DNA from: Oscillospiraceae bacterium
Lineage (GTDB): Bacteria; Bacillota; Clostridia; Oscillospirales; Ruminococcaceae
NCBI GenBank assembly: GCA_017548485.1
Contig: JAFYZY010000106.1
Coordinates: 1-36,836 of the forward strand
DNA length: 36,836 nt
Reading direction: 5' to 3'
The position numbers and the translations under genes are program-made. The notes below the pieces were generated by a model, which worked only from the letters and a program-made list of their open reading frames with translations, was not told the DNA's origin and did not search any database. The first letter of the stretch is position 1; every line of letters begins with the position of its first letter. Positions 12,431 through 17,649 of the stretch are shown here, one piece after another.

Positions 12431-13324
12431 TCAAGAGTATCTGGAGCGCTCTATTCGCTGGGCCTCCTCGTAGAGATAGCAGTAATTCTCATGTCTGCTC
12501 GGGTCGATGAGCCCATCCCGGAGCGCTTCCAGCACCGAGCATCCCTTCTCCACGGTGTGCGAGCATCCGGTGAAATAGCACCCGTCGGTGTGGGCGTCTA
12601 TCTCGGGAAAATAGGATGCCAGGTCGGATTTGTCTATCTTCTCGTCGCGTTCGAAATCGAGCGCGGAGAATCCCGGAGTATCCGCTATATATCCTCCCCG
12701 GAACTCATAGAGCTCCACGGCCCTTGTGGTGTGTTTGCCTCGTCCGAGCTTCTGGCTGATCTCATTCGTCGCCAGCGACAGCCCCGGTATGAGTTTGTTG
12801 AGAAACGTGGATTTGCCGACACCGCTGTTGCCGGAAAAAACTGAGATGTGCCTGTTGCAGATCTCTCCTATCCGCTCAACGGCTCTCTCCTCATCCTGCA
12901 TGACGTCAATGACTTCATATCCGATCCCGCTGTAGATGTTCACTACATCGTCCGCTTTCTTGAGATCGGTCTTGGTGAGGAGTATGACGGGCTTTATCTT
13001 CCTCTGTTCGCACAGCACCGTCATCCGGTCTATGACCAGCAGATTCGGATCCGGTTCCACGGAAGAGACCACGAGGAAGAAGTTGTCCACATTGGAGATG
13101 GGAGGCCGCTTGAACGCGTTCTCCCTTTCATGGATGCGGCTGACGGCATAGCCTCCGCCGCTCTCTGTCACATCCACGAAATCTCCCGCCAGAGGCTTGA
13201 TCCCCTGAAGGCGGAAGATCCCTTTTGCGTTGCATTCAAGGACCTCATCGGCAGTTTTAACATAGTAGAACCCGCCGATCCCTTTCAGGATGAGTCCGCT
13301 TCTCTCCGATGCTTCGCGAATCAT
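12431..13324 (-). CDS. rsgA: RsgA, ribosome small subunit-dependent GTPase A
   Basis: RsgA (YloQ/EngC) is a circularly permuted GTPase that checks late 30S maturation; 297 residues. The OB-fold covers about 1-75. The permuted motifs are TKTDL (117-121), then GNSGVGKS (165-172), then DTPGF (215-219). The zinc site is Cys249, Cys254, His256 and Cys262. It is the last gene after prpC-prkC, the same order as in Bacillus, where the kinase phosphorylates this GTPase. AAGGA lies seven bases before the ATG. Confidence 0.97.
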   Translation of the reverse strand: MIREASERSGLILKGIGGFYYVKTADEVLECNAKGIFRLQGIKPLAGDFVDVTESGGGYAVSRIHERENAFKRPPISNVDNFFLVVSSVEPDPNLLVIDRMTVLCEQRKIKPVILLTKTDLKKADDVVNIYSGIGYEVIDVMQDEERAVERIGEICNRHISVFSGNSGVGKSTFLNKLIPGLSLATNEISQKLGRGKHTTRAVELYEFRGGYIADTPGFSALDFERDEKIDKSDLASYFPEIDAHTDGCYFTGCSHTVEKGCSVLEALRDGLIDPSRHENYCYLYEEAQRIERSRYS

Positions 13325-13328
13325 ATAT

Positions 13329-15878
13329 TTATCCTTCCGGATTCTCAGGCGGCGCGGGAGGCGGTGACTCCTTGAACACTACCGTGATGCTCACGTTTCC
13401 GGTGATGTTGGACACAGTGAGCGTCCCGTTGGAATATGTGCCGCCGGATGTACTGTCGAACTCAAATCCGTCGTCCGGTTTCACGCTGAAAGTGAGCGTG
13501 TCTCCGTAGTATGCCTTTGTGCTGACTCCTCCGGTCCCGTGTTCCACGCTGATGGTAACGGTGTATTCGTTCCTGGTGAACCTTGCCGTCACGGTGTGGT
13601 TCTCGGTGACGTTGCTTATGGTGTACTTGCCGCCGGAGACGTGGGATGTGACATCGCTGCCGTTATCGGTGACGGAGGATATCTGGTATCCGTCCGCGGG
13701 AGTGATCGTCACTTCGGCGCTCTTTCCGGAATAGACTTCCTCGGAGGAAGAAGTGACCTTGCCTTCTCCTTCTGACACTTTTCCGGTTATCAGGTATTTG
13801 CTGGGTTCTTCCATCAGGAATCCGTTGCTCTTGGCGTAATCTCCCACCACCTTGTAAGTGCCTTCCTGGAAGTTCAGGAGGACCTTCCTGTAATCCACTC
13901 CGTTGATCTTGATCAGATATGCCCTGTCTTCGGTTCCCTTGGCTGTGATAGAGAAACCGTTGGAATAGCTGACGCTTGATGTGGAGTACGAAGCGCTTTC
14001 CTCGCCCTCCGCGTACAGCGAAGCGGACATCGACATGTTTCCGCTGGGATCCCAGAAAGGCGCGTCGAACTTGAATGTCGCCTCTTTCTCCGAGAGTTCC
14101 TCCCTGATGGTCAGGCTGACAGTGGTGCCGATGGCGACTCGCGTTCCCCCTCTGATGCTCTGGGTGACCACGCATCCGGGCTCTATGTCTTCATGCCCTT
14201 CCTGCACTCCCCTGACCATCTTTATCTCGCCCTTGTTGAGTCCGTTGCTTATGAGGGCTGCGATGGCCTCCGCCGCTTTCTTTCCCACAAGGTTGGGAAC
14301 CGATGTGGAAAGCGAAGTGACCGGTGAGTTGACGTAGACCTTGACCACTGAGCCGGCTTCCACGGAGGATCCCACTTCCGGATCTGTCCTTGTGATCTGG
14401 TTGGTATCGAAATCGTCGCTCTTGTCTATCTCTCTGTATACTATGAGGCCCAGATCCTGCAGGGTCTTGACTGCATCGCCGTAGGACTCGCCCACTATGG
14501 CGGGGATCGTCACGACCTCCACGCCTTTGCTGACGTAGAGAGTGATCCTTGCGTTGTCCTTGACTGTCTTGGGGGGCTTGGGTACCTGTGAGATAACTGT
14601 CCCGATCGGTACGTCGGCGTTGTACTCCTCCTCTATGCTGAACCTGAATTTGGAGTACTCGGAAGATGACTGTATCGTTCTGATGGACTCACCTATAAAG
14701 TCAGGCAGTTCTATCTCCTCCGGAGTGGTGAAGATGCTGCTCCCGGCATTCTTCAGAGTCATATAGACCAGGAACATCGACCCGAGAAGACATATAAACG
14801 TCAGACCCATTATGAGTCCCATGCCGAAGCCGATGGTCTTTGGTCTCAGCGGCTTCTCCTTCTTGGTCTTGACCTTCTTGGTCTTTTCCTGTTTAGTGTT
14901 TTCCTTTTTAGCCATTTCGCTCTCTTCTGTCCCTTCTGTTTTTTCTCCTGCTGCGGCAGTCCTCTTCTGGGCTACCCTGGAGATATACACCGCAGGATCG
15001 GGGTCGGCATTTGATTTATAGTCGAAATTGTTCTCCGGATTCTTCCGGAAGTGTTCCAGTTCGGTAAGCATCGCTCCGGCAGACTGATACCTGTTGTTCG
15101 GATCCTTCTCCATCGCTTTCTCGATGATCCTCTGCAGCCCTTCCGGAACGTCCGGATTGATCTGATCGATCTTCTTTGCCTGTTCCGATATCTGCTTGAG
15201 AGCGATCGAGACGGGGCTGTCCGCATCAAAGGGAAGCCTTCCGGTGCACATCTCGTACATCATGACTCCGACGCTGTAGATGTCAGCGCGCGAATCGGTC
15301 TCGTCTCCCTTTGCCTGCTCCGGGCTGATGTAGTGCACAGTACCTATAGCCTTGTCGGTTATGGTATGCAGACTGCTGCGGGAGAATCTGGCGATACCGA
15401 AATCCATGACCTTGAGTTTGCCGTCATCGGTGATCATGACGTTCTGAGGCTTCATGTCGCGGTGTACGATGCCGCGGTCATGGGCATGCTGCAGCGCCCT
15501 TAGAAGCTGTTCCGAGAAGGATACCGTCTCTTTCCAGCTCAGCGCCCCGTGCTTCTCCATGTACTGCTTGAGAGTGACGCCCTCAAGATACTCCATCACT
15601 ATGTACTGAACGCTGTCGGAGTAGTTCACGTCGAGGACCTTCACTATGTTCTCGTGATTGAGCATCCTGACGGCCTTGGATTCGTTGCGGAACCTCCTGA
15701 CCAGATCGGTCACTCCGGCATATTCGTCCTTGAGGATCTTGACCGCTACGGTGCTGTTGTCGTTCAGATCTGTGGCTCTGTAGACATACGACATGCCTCC
15801 GACCCCTATCAGTCTGTCGATCTGATAGCGGCCATCCAGTTTCCTGCCTATGTACTTGTCCGTATCGTTCTTGTTCAT
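13329..15878 (-). CDS. prkC: PrkC-type Ser/Thr kinase with three PASTA domains and two InlB-like repeats
   Basis: A membrane Hanks-type kinase of 849 residues that senses cell-wall fragments. The kinase domain is about 17-280: IGVGGMSYVY loop, Lys47, Glu66, HRDMKPQN at 139-146, DFG at 159-161 and a TDKAIGTVHYISPE activation region. A Lys/Glu-rich juxtamembrane stretch (about 310-345) precedes one transmembrane helix (about 348-374). Outside are PASTA domains at about 389-451, 452-519 and 523-592, an unassigned Ser/Tyr-rich beta domain (about 600-690), two repeats resembling the divergent InlB B-repeat (about 695-768 and 771-836), and a Pro-rich end. The canonical family stops after the PASTA array, so about 250 residues are extra. 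It is coupled to prpC by an ATGA overlap. Confidence 0.96.
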   Translation of the reverse strand: MNKNDTDKYIGRKLDGRYQIDRLIGVGGMSYVYRATDLNDNSTVAVKILKDEYAGVTDLVRRFRNESKAVRMLNHENIVKVLDVNYSDSVQYIVMEYLEGVTLKQYMEKHGALSWKETVSFSEQLLRALQHAHDRGIVHRDMKPQNVMITDDGKLKVMDFGIARFSRSSLHTITDKAIGTVHYISPEQAKGDETDSRADIYSVGVMMYEMCTGRLPFDADSPVSIALKQISEQAKKIDQINPDVPEGLQRIIEKAMEKDPNNRYQSAGAMLTELEHFRKNPENNFDYKSNADPDPAVYISRVAQKRTAAAGEKTEGTEESEMAKKENTKQEKTKKVKTKKEKPLRPKTIGFGMGLIMGLTFICLLGSMFLVYMTLKNAGSSIFTTPEEIELPDFIGESIRTIQSSSEYSKFRFSIEEEYNADVPIGTVISQVPKPPKTVKDNARITLYVSKGVEVVTIPAIVGESYGDAVKTLQDLGLIVYREIDKSDDFDTNQITRTDPEVGSSVEAGSVVKVYVNSPVTSLSTSVPNLVGKKAAEAIAALISNGLNKGEIKMVRGVQEGHEDIEPGCVVTQSIRGGTRVAIGTTVSLTIREELSEKEATFKFDAPFWDPSGNMSMSASLYAEGEESASYSTSSVSYSNGFSITAKGTEDRAYLIKINGVDYRKVLLNFQEGTYKVVGDYAKSNGFLMEEPSKYLITGKVSEGEGKVTSSSEEVYSGKSAEVTITPADGYQISSVTDNGSDVTSHVSGGKYTISNVTENHTVTARFTRNEYTVTISVEHGTGGVSTKAYYGDTLTFSVKPDDGFEFDSTSGGTYSNGTLTVSNITGNVSITVVFKESPPPAPPENPEG

Positions 15879-16603
15879 ACTTTAAGTACCAGCGCCGTCG
15901 TGTTGTCATATGCCCCTTCTTCCAGGGCTCTCCTGACCAGTTCTTCAGCTGAACTGTAAAAATCCGTATCCGAGAGGATGCCGCACATCACGTCGGACGT
16001 GAGGATGTTAGACAGGCCGTCGCTGCAGAGCATGAGCATATCGCCTTTCCTGAGTCGAACGGTGTCGATGTCTATCTTGAGGCCTCTCTCCACCCCCAGG
16101 GCATTCGTGATGATGTTCTTGTTGGGATGGTTCATCGCCTGCTCGACAGTGATCTTGCCGGAATCCAGCAGATCCTGCACGATGGAATGATCCCTGGTGA
16201 TCTGAGTGAGCGTATTTCTCTGGAAATGATATGCCCTGCTGTCGCCGCAGTGAGCGATGACCGCTTCCCTGTTCCTGACGACTGCCAGGACAGCGGTAGT
16301 GCCCATCATGATATCTCCCTGCAGGCTGTGGGATTCGTCCAGCAGTCTGGAGTTCGCTTTTCTGAGCGTATATGTGATCAGCTCAGAGATGTCAGCTATG
16401 CTGTTCATCCCCGAGAGATTGTCTCTGAGTATCTCGCAGACCGTCTCCGAGACGATCCTGCTGGCGCGTTCTCCGTAAGCAAGACCGCCCATACCGTCGC
16501 ACAGGATCATCCAGTAAAGGCTGTCGTTGATCCTTCCCGCAAGGTAGCAGTCCTGATTCACCTCATATTTGAGACCTATATCCGTAAAACCGGTGACATT
16601 CAT
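15875..16603 (-). CDS. prpC: PrpC-type PP2C protein phosphatase
   Basis: A cytoplasmic metal-dependent Ser/Thr phosphatase that reverses PrkC phosphorylation. The ATG at 16603 gives 242 residues beginning MNVTGFTDIGLKYEVNQD, with the metal-binding motifs CDGMGG at 35-40, MGTTAVLAV, HCGDSRAY, CSDGLSN and DNTTALVL ending the protein (Asp233). An upstream start would add 20 Arg-rich residues encoded inside rlmN and is rejected. It overlaps rlmN by four bases before it and prkC by four bases after it. Confidence 0.96.
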   Translation of the reverse strand: MNVTGFTDIGLKYEVNQDCYLAGRINDSLYWMILCDGMGGLAYGERASRIVSETVCEILRDNLSGMNSIADISELITYTLRKANSRLLDESHSLQGDIMMGTTAVLAVVRNREAVIAHCGDSRAYHFQRNTLTQITRDHSIVQDLLDSGKITVEQAMNHPNKNIITNALGVERGLKIDIDTVRLRKGDMLMLCSDGLSNILTSDVMCGILSDTDFYSSAEELVRRALEEGAYDNTTALVLKV

Positions 16604-17649
16604 GAACTTGAATTCTCCGATATGTGATCTTCGTTTATCGTATCTCTGCGCAGCTGTCCGCATGCGGCTGAGATATCGTTTCCGAGAGTCCTGCGGACAG
16701 TCGCGTTCACCCCTCTTGAGGTGAGTTTTTCCGCAAAGCTCTCGGCCTGCTTTCTGGTAGCTCTGAAATCGCCCCTTCCGGCTTCATTTACCGGTATGAC
16801 GTTGACGTGGCTCTGGAATCCCCTGACGAGTTCAGAAAGTCTTTCCGCGTCATCGTCGCCGTCGTTGAAACCGTGTATGACCGTATACTCGAAGGATATC
16901 CTCCTGCCTGTGATCTCGACATAGCGCCTGCAGGCCGGTATGAGCTCTTCCAGAGGATATCTCAGGTTCACGGGCATAATGCTGCTTCTCTTGTCGGGGA
17001 ATGCAGCGTGCAGCGATATGGACAGTGTGAGCTGTTTTTTTAGCTCTGCGAGTCTGAGTATCTGCGGGATGATGCCGCAGGTCGACAGTGTGACCGAGCG
17101 GTTCTTCATGCCGTATCCGTCAGCGTCCGTCAGTATGTCGTAGAACCTCATCACCTCATCGAAGTTGTCCAGAGGCTCCCCTATTCCCATAAGCACCACG
17201 CTGTCCACGGGCATCCCGTACAGTTCCGACGCCGCGTAGACTTCGGCCAGCATCTCGCCCGCAGTGAGCGAGCGCACGAGCCCGTTCTGAGTGGATGCGC
17301 AGAATCTGCACCCCATCCTGCATCCGACCTGTGTGGAGACACAGACGGAGAGACCGTGCTCGTACAGCATGGCGACCGTCTCAACGCAGTTTCCGTCGGC
17401 AAACGAGAGCAGATACTTCTCCGTCCCGTCCGACGATCTCTGACGTCTCACGCATTCCGCCCTGGTGATGGTGTATTCCGACGCAAGCCAGTCACGTGTC
17501 GCCGCAGGCAGATTCGTCATCTGCGAGAAGTCCGGCACGCGTTTCCTGTGCAGCCATTCAAAGAGCTGTTTCGCTCTGAATGAAGGCTCGTTCTTTTCAC
17601 TGAAGATCTCCTTCAGTTCTGACTTGTAAAGACGGCTGATTTCCATCAT
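16600..17649 (-). CDS. rlmN: RlmN, 23S rRNA/tRNA adenine-C2 methyltransferase
   Basis: A radical-SAM enzyme of 349 residues that methylates C2 of A2503 in 23S rRNA, and A37 of some tRNAs. The 4Fe-4S cysteines are in CRMGCRFC (Cys110, Cys114, Cys117), followed by VLMGIGEPLDNFD. The methyl-carrying C-terminal cysteine is Cys330 in SAACGQL. No clear Shine-Dalgarno precedes the ATG pair at 17649/17646, which lies nine bases after the rsmB stop, so translation may depend on coupling. Cfr is a less likely alternative, because this is the housekeeping context. Confidence 0.96.
   Translation of the reverse strand: MMEISRLYKSELKEIFSEKNEPSFRAKQLFEWLHRKRVPDFSQMTNLPAATRDWLASEYTITRAECVRRQRSSDGTEKYLLSFADGNCVETVAMLYEHGLSVCVSTQVGCRMGCRFCASTQNGLVRSLTAGEMLAEVYAASELYGMPVDSVVLMGIGEPLDNFDEVMRFYDILTDADGYGMKNRSVTLSTCGIIPQILRLAELKKQLTLSISLHAAFPDKRSSIMPVNLRYPLEELIPACRRYVEITGRRISFEYTVIHGFNDGDDDAERLSELVRGFQSHVNVIPVNEAGRGDFRATRKQAESFAEKLTSRGVNATVRRTLGNDISAACGQLRRDTINEDHISENSSS

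What the first reader, a model, noticed from the sequence alone, without database searches (positions are those of the whole stretch)
13329..13800. PrkC kinase with two InlB-like repeats appended beyond the PASTA stalk
Residues about 695-836 form two repeats with the Thr/Val-rich pattern and YTVTISVEHGTGG-like spacing of divergent InlB B-repeats. They are followed by a Pro-rich tail. Standard PrkC/StkP proteins end after PASTA domains. The addition suggests an extra adhesive or cell-wall/ligand contact and so a possibly different signal for this kinase.
Basis: partly seen in the sequence, partly recalled or inferred. Interest (0 to 1): 0.55.

Follow-up and report, generated by a model that had tools for sequence, protein, structure and literature searches.

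The report
Wall-sensing kinase with exchangeable adhesin-like tip
A bacterial sensor kinase that normally feels the cell wall carries, at its outermost end, two repeats of a kind normally found in surface adhesins; related gut bacteria carry other surface modules at the same spot, so the tip looks like an exchangeable part of this sensor.

Summary
Confirmed: the 849-aa PASTA kinase at 13329-15878 (-) ends in two Pfam Flg_new_2 (divergent InlB B-repeat) units, residues 696-771 and 772-838, plus an 11-aa Pro-rich end. PrkC therefore does not normally "end after PASTA"; the repeats sit beyond an Ig-like cap.

The repeats are in frame in the stp-prkC-rsgA operon, under purifying selection, and present in 5 of 9 genus genomes. 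Three sister species carry Cys-rich repeats at the same place; one genome yielded no PrkC. In a 130-kinase tree the enclosing 13-kinase clade carries four kinds of tip module: InlB repeats, Cys-rich repeats, FIVAR-like, Big_2. InlB-type units also recur on PrkC in two distant groups: genus g88 (7 of 10 genomes) and family f67 (95 of 98). So this is a recurrent, lineage-specific exchange of tip modules, not a unique oddity.

Most likely role (inferred): a rigid, weakly adhesive extension that anchors or positions the kinase in the outer wall while PASTA domains sense wall fragments. The ligand is unknown. New variant of a known kind; interest moderate.

The parts
13329..15878 (-). prkC/stk1-type PASTA Ser/Thr kinase, 849 aa, with the post-PASTA extension
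   Evidence: NF033483 PknB_PASTA_kin 537.1 bits against cut-off 450, residues 10-591; Pkinase 200.4 bits, PASTA x3 112.9 bits; HRDMKPQN 139-146, DFG 159-161
15081..15827 (-). kinase domain, residues 18-266
   Evidence: PF00069
14760..14834 (-). transmembrane segment, residues 349-373 (by sequence)
   Evidence: hydrophobic stretch located; no TM predictor run
14106..14726 (-). three PASTA domains, about residues 385-591
   Evidence: PF03793, 3 stretches; own PASTA HMM
   Evidence: 7-strand AlphaFold2 model, pLDDT 75.6; best Foldseek hit 3py9, S. aureus PrkC extracellular region, prob 0.99 but E 0.035; VIA Z 4.8 to 3py9, tied with many Ig/FN3 folds
13566..13793 (-). InlB B-type repeat 1 (Flg_new_2), residues 696-771
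   Evidence: PF18998 36.7 bits at 13569-13775
13365..13565 (-). InlB B-type repeat 2 (Flg_new_2), residues 772-838
   Evidence: PF18998 26.2 bits at 13368-13565; 38.5 bits against best shuffle 15.3
13332..13364 (-). Pro-rich C-terminal end, residues 839-849
   Evidence: sequence
15875..16663 (-). Stp1-type PP2C phosphatase, overlaps the prkC start by 4 bases
   Evidence: NF033484 224.5 bits, cut-off 230, just under; overlap
12431..13324 (-). rsgA GTPase, starts 4 bases after the prkC stop
   Evidence: TIGR00157 210.1 bits, cut-off 100

Best explanation
This is an ordinary Stk1/PrkC-type PASTA kinase whose rod-shaped ectodomain (PASTA x3, then an Ig-like cap) has been lengthened by two surface-protein repeat domains. 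The tip is an exchangeable module site: related kinases put InlB B-type repeats, Cys-rich repeats, FIVAR-like or Big_2 domains at the same place. Most likely (inferred) the tip reaches the outer wall and makes weak, adhesive contacts with the cell's own envelope (wall polymer, surface protein, or the tip of another PrkC). It would thereby hold or cluster the kinase, while the PASTA domains keep sensing wall fragments and the kinase/Stp pair keeps its usual outputs. Shown: architecture, conservation, module exchange, recurrence. Inferred: outer location, contact, effect on signalling.
For: Two Flg_new_2 units over cut-off. Purifying selection: omega 0.011-0.078 for repeat 1 and 0.033-0.140 for repeat 2 over the three pairs with unsaturated dS, against 0.028-0.048 for PASTA. 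GC and GC3 of the tail equal those of the rest of the gene. Module exchange: 5 InlB, 3 Cys-rich and 1 genome without PrkC, of 9 genus genomes. Exactly the 13 kinases with long module tails form one clade (support 0.998) in a 130-row tree not chosen by tail. Recurrence: InlB-type tips in genus g88, 7 of 10 genomes, and family f67, 95 of 98. Non-kinase ORFs with the repeats look like secreted or membrane-anchored surface proteins (by eye). The repeat pair (694-845) matches the surface protein YwfG at Z 7.5, 134 residues, 4.0 A. Precedents: the S. aureus Ig-like cap was proposed to be adhesive and to bind peptidoglycan (PMC3601408, section 8); a hydrophobic strand of the InlB B repeat is its proposed ligand or weak self-contact site (PMC8900821, passages); the distal PASTA of StkP is said to drive septal localization and cell separation (PMC6593474, one passage citing Zucchini 2018).
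Against: No ligand, localisation or signalling datum exists for any of these proteins. All VIA Z values are under 8, and repeat 1 matched vertebrate Ig domains as well as anything. Domain orientation in the model is unreliable (pTM 0.45, PASTA part pLDDT under 52). C. difficile and B. subtilis PrkC are reported to need neither PASTA nor the C-terminal region for phosphorylation or septal localisation (PMC9674922, PMC5786024, passages), so a tip may matter little. Within g88 the module is absent in 3 of 10 genomes, so it is dispensable.
Confidence: 0.45

Rival explanations
1. Passive spacer: the modules only lengthen or stiffen the ectodomain so that the PASTA/Ig part sits at the right height in a thicker wall; any folded stalk domain would do.
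For: Four structurally different module types occupy the same place in one clade; many relatives use Pro/Thr-rich stretches there instead; g88 genomes lack the module in 3 of 10 cases.
Against: Repeats are as constrained as the PASTA domains in two of three pairs and only somewhat less in the third, and each repeat is kept in its own position across five species, more than a bare spacer needs.
Confidence: 0.27
2. Dimerisation tip: B-type repeats weakly self-associate and favour PrkC dimers, tuning kinase activation.
For: InlB B repeat has a proposed sticky strand and a proposed weak homodimer role (PMC8900821, passages read). That PASTA kinases activate through dimers is general knowledge, recalled.
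Against: InlB B-repeat homodimers were not seen even in crystals (same paper); not tested here; would not explain the other module types.
Confidence: 0.13
3. Environmental sensor: the tip binds an external polymer (mucin, plant or neighbour glycan) and changes the signal read by the kinase.
For: Three of the four named relatives come from ruminant gut by their record titles; repeat 2 resembles a domain of a Pediococcus adhesion exoprotein (2kyw, Z 6.8) and a repeat of mucus-binding MUB (3i57, Z 5.5).
Against: Fold resemblance says nothing on ligand; all Z under 8; no binding site conservation analysed; no host-range correlation tested.
Confidence: 0.15

Closest known systems
S. aureus PrkC/PknB (Stk1), PDB 3py9
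   Same: Kinase, TM, three PASTA domains and a C-terminal Ig-like domain; best Foldseek hit of the post-PASTA domain
   Different: S. aureus protein ends at the Ig-like domain (PMC3601408); the window protein adds two InlB B-type repeats and a Pro-rich end
C. difficile PrkC with Ser-Gly-Asn-rich segment
   Same: PASTA kinase with an extra C-terminal segment beyond PASTA (PMC9674922, passages)
   Different: The C. difficile segment is described as a Ser-Gly-Asn-rich stretch, not as folded repeats
   Same: PASTA kinase with an InlB B-type repeat at the tip, rsgA downstream in the two loci checked
   Different: A single repeat between Pro/Thr-rich linkers; no post-PASTA Ig-like domain seen by eye; repeats not recognisably close to those of the window
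Listeria InlB B repeat (PF18998 class), PDB 7pv9, 7nms
   Same: Profile family name; whole-model Foldseek hits prob 0.98-0.99
   Different: InlB is a surface protein without a kinase; its B repeat lies between an internalin domain and GW domains (PMC8900821)

Membership tests
Stk1/PrkC PASTA kinase (NF033483) | profile score over the curated cut-off | tested here: met
   537.1 bits against 450, residues 10-591
Stk1/PrkC PASTA kinase (NF033483) | kinase domain with catalytic motifs, single TM, extracellular PASTA repeats | tested here: met
   PF00069 and PF03793 x3; motifs and TM stretch; TM by eye only
Stk1/PrkC PASTA kinase (NF033483) | partner PP2C phosphatase gene next to it | tested here: inconclusive
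   ORF 15875-16663 matches NF033484 at 224.5 bits, just under the cut-off of 230
Stk1/PrkC PASTA kinase (NF033483) | muropeptide or lipid II sensing | not testable with these tools
   needs binding assays
Divergent InlB B-repeat domain (PF18998 Flg_new_2) | profile score over the gathering cut-off | tested here: met
   47.0 bits for the segment, both repeats over 23.6
Divergent InlB B-repeat domain (PF18998 Flg_new_2) | beta-grasp-like fold of the InlB B repeat | tested here: inconclusive
   InlB structures among Foldseek hits, repeat 2 to 2kyw Z 6.8, repeat 1 to Ig domains Z 6.9; all under 8
Divergent InlB B-repeat domain (PF18998 Flg_new_2) | adhesive or receptor-related function | not testable with these tools
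S. aureus PrkC-type C-terminal Ig-like domain | Ig-like beta domain directly after the last PASTA | tested here: inconclusive
   position fits; Foldseek prob 0.99 but E 0.035; VIA Z 4.8, 73 residues, 3.3 A, tied with others

The most novel reading that the evidence does not exclude
In these gut Clostridia the outer tip of the PASTA kinase is an interchangeable receptor module: lineages swap adhesin-type domains (InlB B repeats, Cys-rich ribbons, FIVAR, Big_2) onto a conserved wall-sensing kinase and so rewire what it touches and reports, a bacterial counterpart of receptor-kinase ectodomain shuffling.
Probability: 0.22. Interest if true: 0.75.

Novelty: new variant of a known kind. Interest (0 to 1): 0.45.

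Why it matters
What PASTA kinases really sense is still argued over. A set of natural kinases that share kinase, PASTA and cap but differ only in the tip, inside one genus, is a ready-made experiment: swapping tips would show whether the outermost domain sets ligand, position or activity. It also shows that surface-adhesion modules are repeatedly recruited to a core signalling protein in uncultured gut bacteria. If the tip is only a spacer, the matter is ordinary domain accretion.

Tried and rejected
Rejected: (a) assembly chimera, because four other assemblies have the same gene and the operon continues intact. (b) Recent foreign insertion, because GC and GC3 of the tail match the gene; the 5 species are monophyletic, 100/100 in a 30-row tree, and the genus clade has support 1.0 in the 130-row tree. 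(c) Uniqueness to this genus, which I first believed: the class survey and family f67 showed otherwise. (d) G200 and G316 places that spanned both parts of the query: both are non-kinase surface-type ORFs. (e) ~750-1000-aa ORFs of family f20, suspected kinases: of these, L207, L210 and L211 were read and are surface-type proteins with repeats; for L212 the script showed another frame, and the rest were not read.

Led nowhere: sequence search of the repeats against PDB gave one chance-level hit. The f67-repeat HMM did not find the window repeats above shuffles. Pfam missed the g88 repeat that the custom HMM finds. The phylum sample (348 genomes) showed no new clear PrkC plus repeat; partial spans in G1203, G1300, G1177 and G1029 were not read. 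Families absent from the VIA lists are not excluded.

Literature (held library only): PASTA+InlB+PrkC 0 papers; PASTA+Flg_new 0; 'InlB B-repeat'+kinase 8 papers, none on a PASTA kinase by title and start of abstract; searches gave no survey of PASTA-kinase tips among the listings seen. Most subscription papers are not in that library.

Rows dropped: the family set is 129 kinase ORFs out of 132 loci tried (3 without an ORF found); about a dozen PrkC places were not fetched; only tails of 60 aa or more went to Pfam (109; 107, with 14 shorter ones left out). L253-L257 were left out of the class set because they were picked from PASTA hits and not shown to be kinases. The tree used 30 rows chosen partly for long tails; one search repeats it with all 130 rows having 3 or more PASTA hits (two of them f67).

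Full report
WHAT IS THERE. The minus-strand ORF 13329-15878 encodes 849 residues. NCBIfam calls residues 10-591 a Stk1-family PASTA kinase (537.1 bits against cut-off 450). Pfam finds the kinase domain (18-266), three PASTA stretches and two Flg_new_2 ('divergent InlB B-repeat') stretches. Catalytic motifs HRDMKPQN and DFG are intact, and a hydrophobic segment lies at 349-373. Repeat 1 is residues 696-771, repeat 2 residues 772-838, then PPPAPPENPEG to the stop. The gene overlaps an Stp1-type phosphatase by 4 bases (224.5 bits, a little under the curated 230) and is followed after 4 bases by rsgA.

IS IT MORE THAN CHANCE. Both repeats pass Pfam's cut-off on their own (36.7 and 26.2 against 23.6 bits). 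An HMM built from 61 non-kinase repeat copies, chosen by similarity to repeat 1 only, scores repeat 2 at 38.5 bits; the best of 5000 shuffles of repeat 2 reaches 15.3. Against: an HMM from the f67 kinase repeats described below gives the window repeats no more than shuffles, so those two sets are related only through the wider family. In the window's own assembly the two kinase repeats are the only PF18998 places.

Residues 592-693 are a separate domain. AlphaFold2 gives seven strands (mean pLDDT 75.6). The top Foldseek hit in the PDB is 3py9, the extracellular region of S. aureus PrkC (prob 0.99, E 0.035). VIA-align places 3py9 at Z 4.8, 73 residues, 3.3 A, tied with many Ig/FN3-type folds. 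That S. aureus protein has a fourth, Ig-like domain after PASTA 3, proposed to be adhesive or peptidoglycan-binding (PMC3601408, section 8 read). B. subtilis PrkC constructs are also named with an Ig-like part (PMC5786024, passages). So PrkC proteins often do not end at PASTA; the oddity lies one domain further out.

CONSERVATION. Of 9 genus genomes, 5 have a match running through both the post-PASTA domain and the repeats: G000, G001, G008, G003, G002, at 100, 97, 78, 62 and 58% identity over the queried C-terminal part. G004, G006 and G007 have PrkC, but their tails after the post-PASTA domain are Cys-rich repeats (by eye; Pfam knows no such family). In G005 no PrkC ortholog was recovered. 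Nei-Gojobori omega for the three pairs with usable dS is 0.011-0.078 (repeat 1) and 0.033-0.140 (repeat 2), against 0.028-0.048 for PASTA. dS is 0.5-1.6 in those pairs for the repeats, so values are rough; in the other three pairs dS is very high or saturated. GC is 0.553 and 0.542 for the repeats, 0.544 for the kinase and 0.543 for the window.

MODULE EXCHANGE. I extracted 129 kinase ORFs from 132 loci of the family and order; 120 had complete tails, median 130.5 aa. Pfam on the 109 tails of at least 60 aa found Flg_new_2 in 5 (all own genus), PKD in 2, Big_2 in 1, FIVAR in 1 (the FIVAR hits are under Pfam's cut-off). In a FastTree of 130 kinases (kinase plus PASTA only, all rows with 3 or more PASTA hits, two of them f67) the genus is a clade (1.0). 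The next clade outward (0.998) holds exactly 13 kinases with tails of 175-316 aa: 5 InlB, 5 Cys-rich, 2 FIVAR-like, 1 Big_2. The 21 further kinases in the next clade mostly have tails of 11-160 aa (one, L181, is 195). An IQ-TREE of 30 rows, partly chosen by tail, agrees: InlB clade 100/100, 13-row clade 100/100. Order of branching among the non-genus members is open, so which tip is ancestral is not settled; Cys-rich tips in two outgroups make replacement by InlB repeats plausible only. The Cys-rich module is not private to the kinase: all 9 genus genomes have matches to it. In the window's own genome it sits on a GDSL-type hydrolase (Lipase_GDSL_2 38.1 bits, cut-off 32.9) with an N-terminal hydrophobic segment (by eye).

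RECURRENCE ELSEWHERE. The custom repeat HMM on 216 tails (109 family/order, 107 class/order) hits 8: the five genus members, L164 (genus g88 of the same family, 36.4 bits) and L260, L261 (family f67 of the same class). Pfam confirms L260 and L261 at 53.1 and 53.5 bits and gives 2 of 107 for the class set; it misses L164. In genus g88, 7 of 10 genomes carry the module and 3 stop before it; 7 of 8 fetched loci score with the HMM, and the eighth is one of the three. In family f67, 95 of 98 sampled genomes have a match running from PASTA into the repeat, by my count of the rows (exceptions G948, G953, G959). All 12 fetched loci, the query's own included, have the kinase motif. L164 lies far from the genus in the tree. 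By parsimony this is at least three recruitments; losses were not modelled. A phylum sample of 348 genomes with the f67 query gave no further clear case.

STRUCTURE. The 334-residue model (5 sequences) has pLDDT about 90-95 over both repeats, under 52 for the PASTA part, and pTM 0.45, so domain placement is not to be used. Foldseek hits include SdrD (E 3.9e-5), 3py9 (2.7e-4) and InlB with its B repeat (7pv9, 7nms; prob 0.98-0.99, E about 2.5e-3), all with low TM-scores. VIA-align matches residues 694-845 to the surface protein YwfG (Z 7.5, 134 residues, 4.0 A) and repeat 2 to a domain of a Pediococcus adhesion exoprotein (Z 6.8). Repeat 1 matches vertebrate Ig domains best (Z 6.9, 69 residues, 2.4 A). 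All are under Z 8, so only the general type (beta domains common in surface proteins) is supported.

MECHANISM. Inferred: the ectodomain of PASTA kinases is a linear rod (PMC3601408). Two more compact domains beyond the cap put a folded tip further from the membrane. The B repeat of InlB has a proposed hydrophobic ligand groove on strand beta2 and a proposed, unproven weak self-contact (PMC8900821, passages). In StkP the most distal PASTA is reported to drive septal localisation and to bear a motif for cell separation (PMC6593474, one passage citing Zucchini 2018, which I did not see). The most likely role is therefore weak anchoring or positioning within the cell's own envelope (0.45), with spacer (0.27), external ligand (0.15) and dimerisation (0.13) as rivals. 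Against any strong role: in C. [quoted passage not shown] subtilis (PMC9674922, passages), and g88 shows the module can be absent.

VERDICT. Observation confirmed; interpretation partly supported. A known kinase kind with a variant tip that recurs and is exchanged between lineages. I found no description of it in the held literature, which leaves out most subscription journals.

Noticed in passing
L357 1-1674 (G000:C124), orthologs L364, L358, L359: A GDSL-type hydrolase with an N-terminal hydrophobic segment and C-terminal Cys-rich CxxC repeats plus acidic/Pro tail; the same repeat type caps PrkC in three sister species.
   Followed up: partly
G002:C18:29936-30091, G003:C5:29893-30054, G004:C45:51077-51220: Open frames of about 10,000 codons (10266, 10023, 10350) with an Flg_new_2 match: giant surface-type proteins in the genus.
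   Followed up: no
L260, L261, L342-L353 (family f67): PrkC with a single InlB-type repeat between Pro/Thr-rich linkers in 95 of 98 sampled genomes of one family.
   Followed up: partly
L243, L244 (G768, G804, family f39): PrkC-like ORFs of about 940 aa with five PASTA hits.
   Followed up: no
L165, L132, L181, L336: Tails that look like tandem copies of the post-PASTA domain (by eye).
   Followed up: no
L190 38-700 (G027): Trp/Gly-rich short repeats at the PrkC end, reminiscent by eye of wall- or glucan-binding repeats; no such Pfam family matched.
   Followed up: no
L199 26-535 (G132): PrkC tail starting with CxxC motifs right after PASTA, then Pro/Ser/Asp-rich; weak zinc-ribbon matches only.
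   Followed up: no
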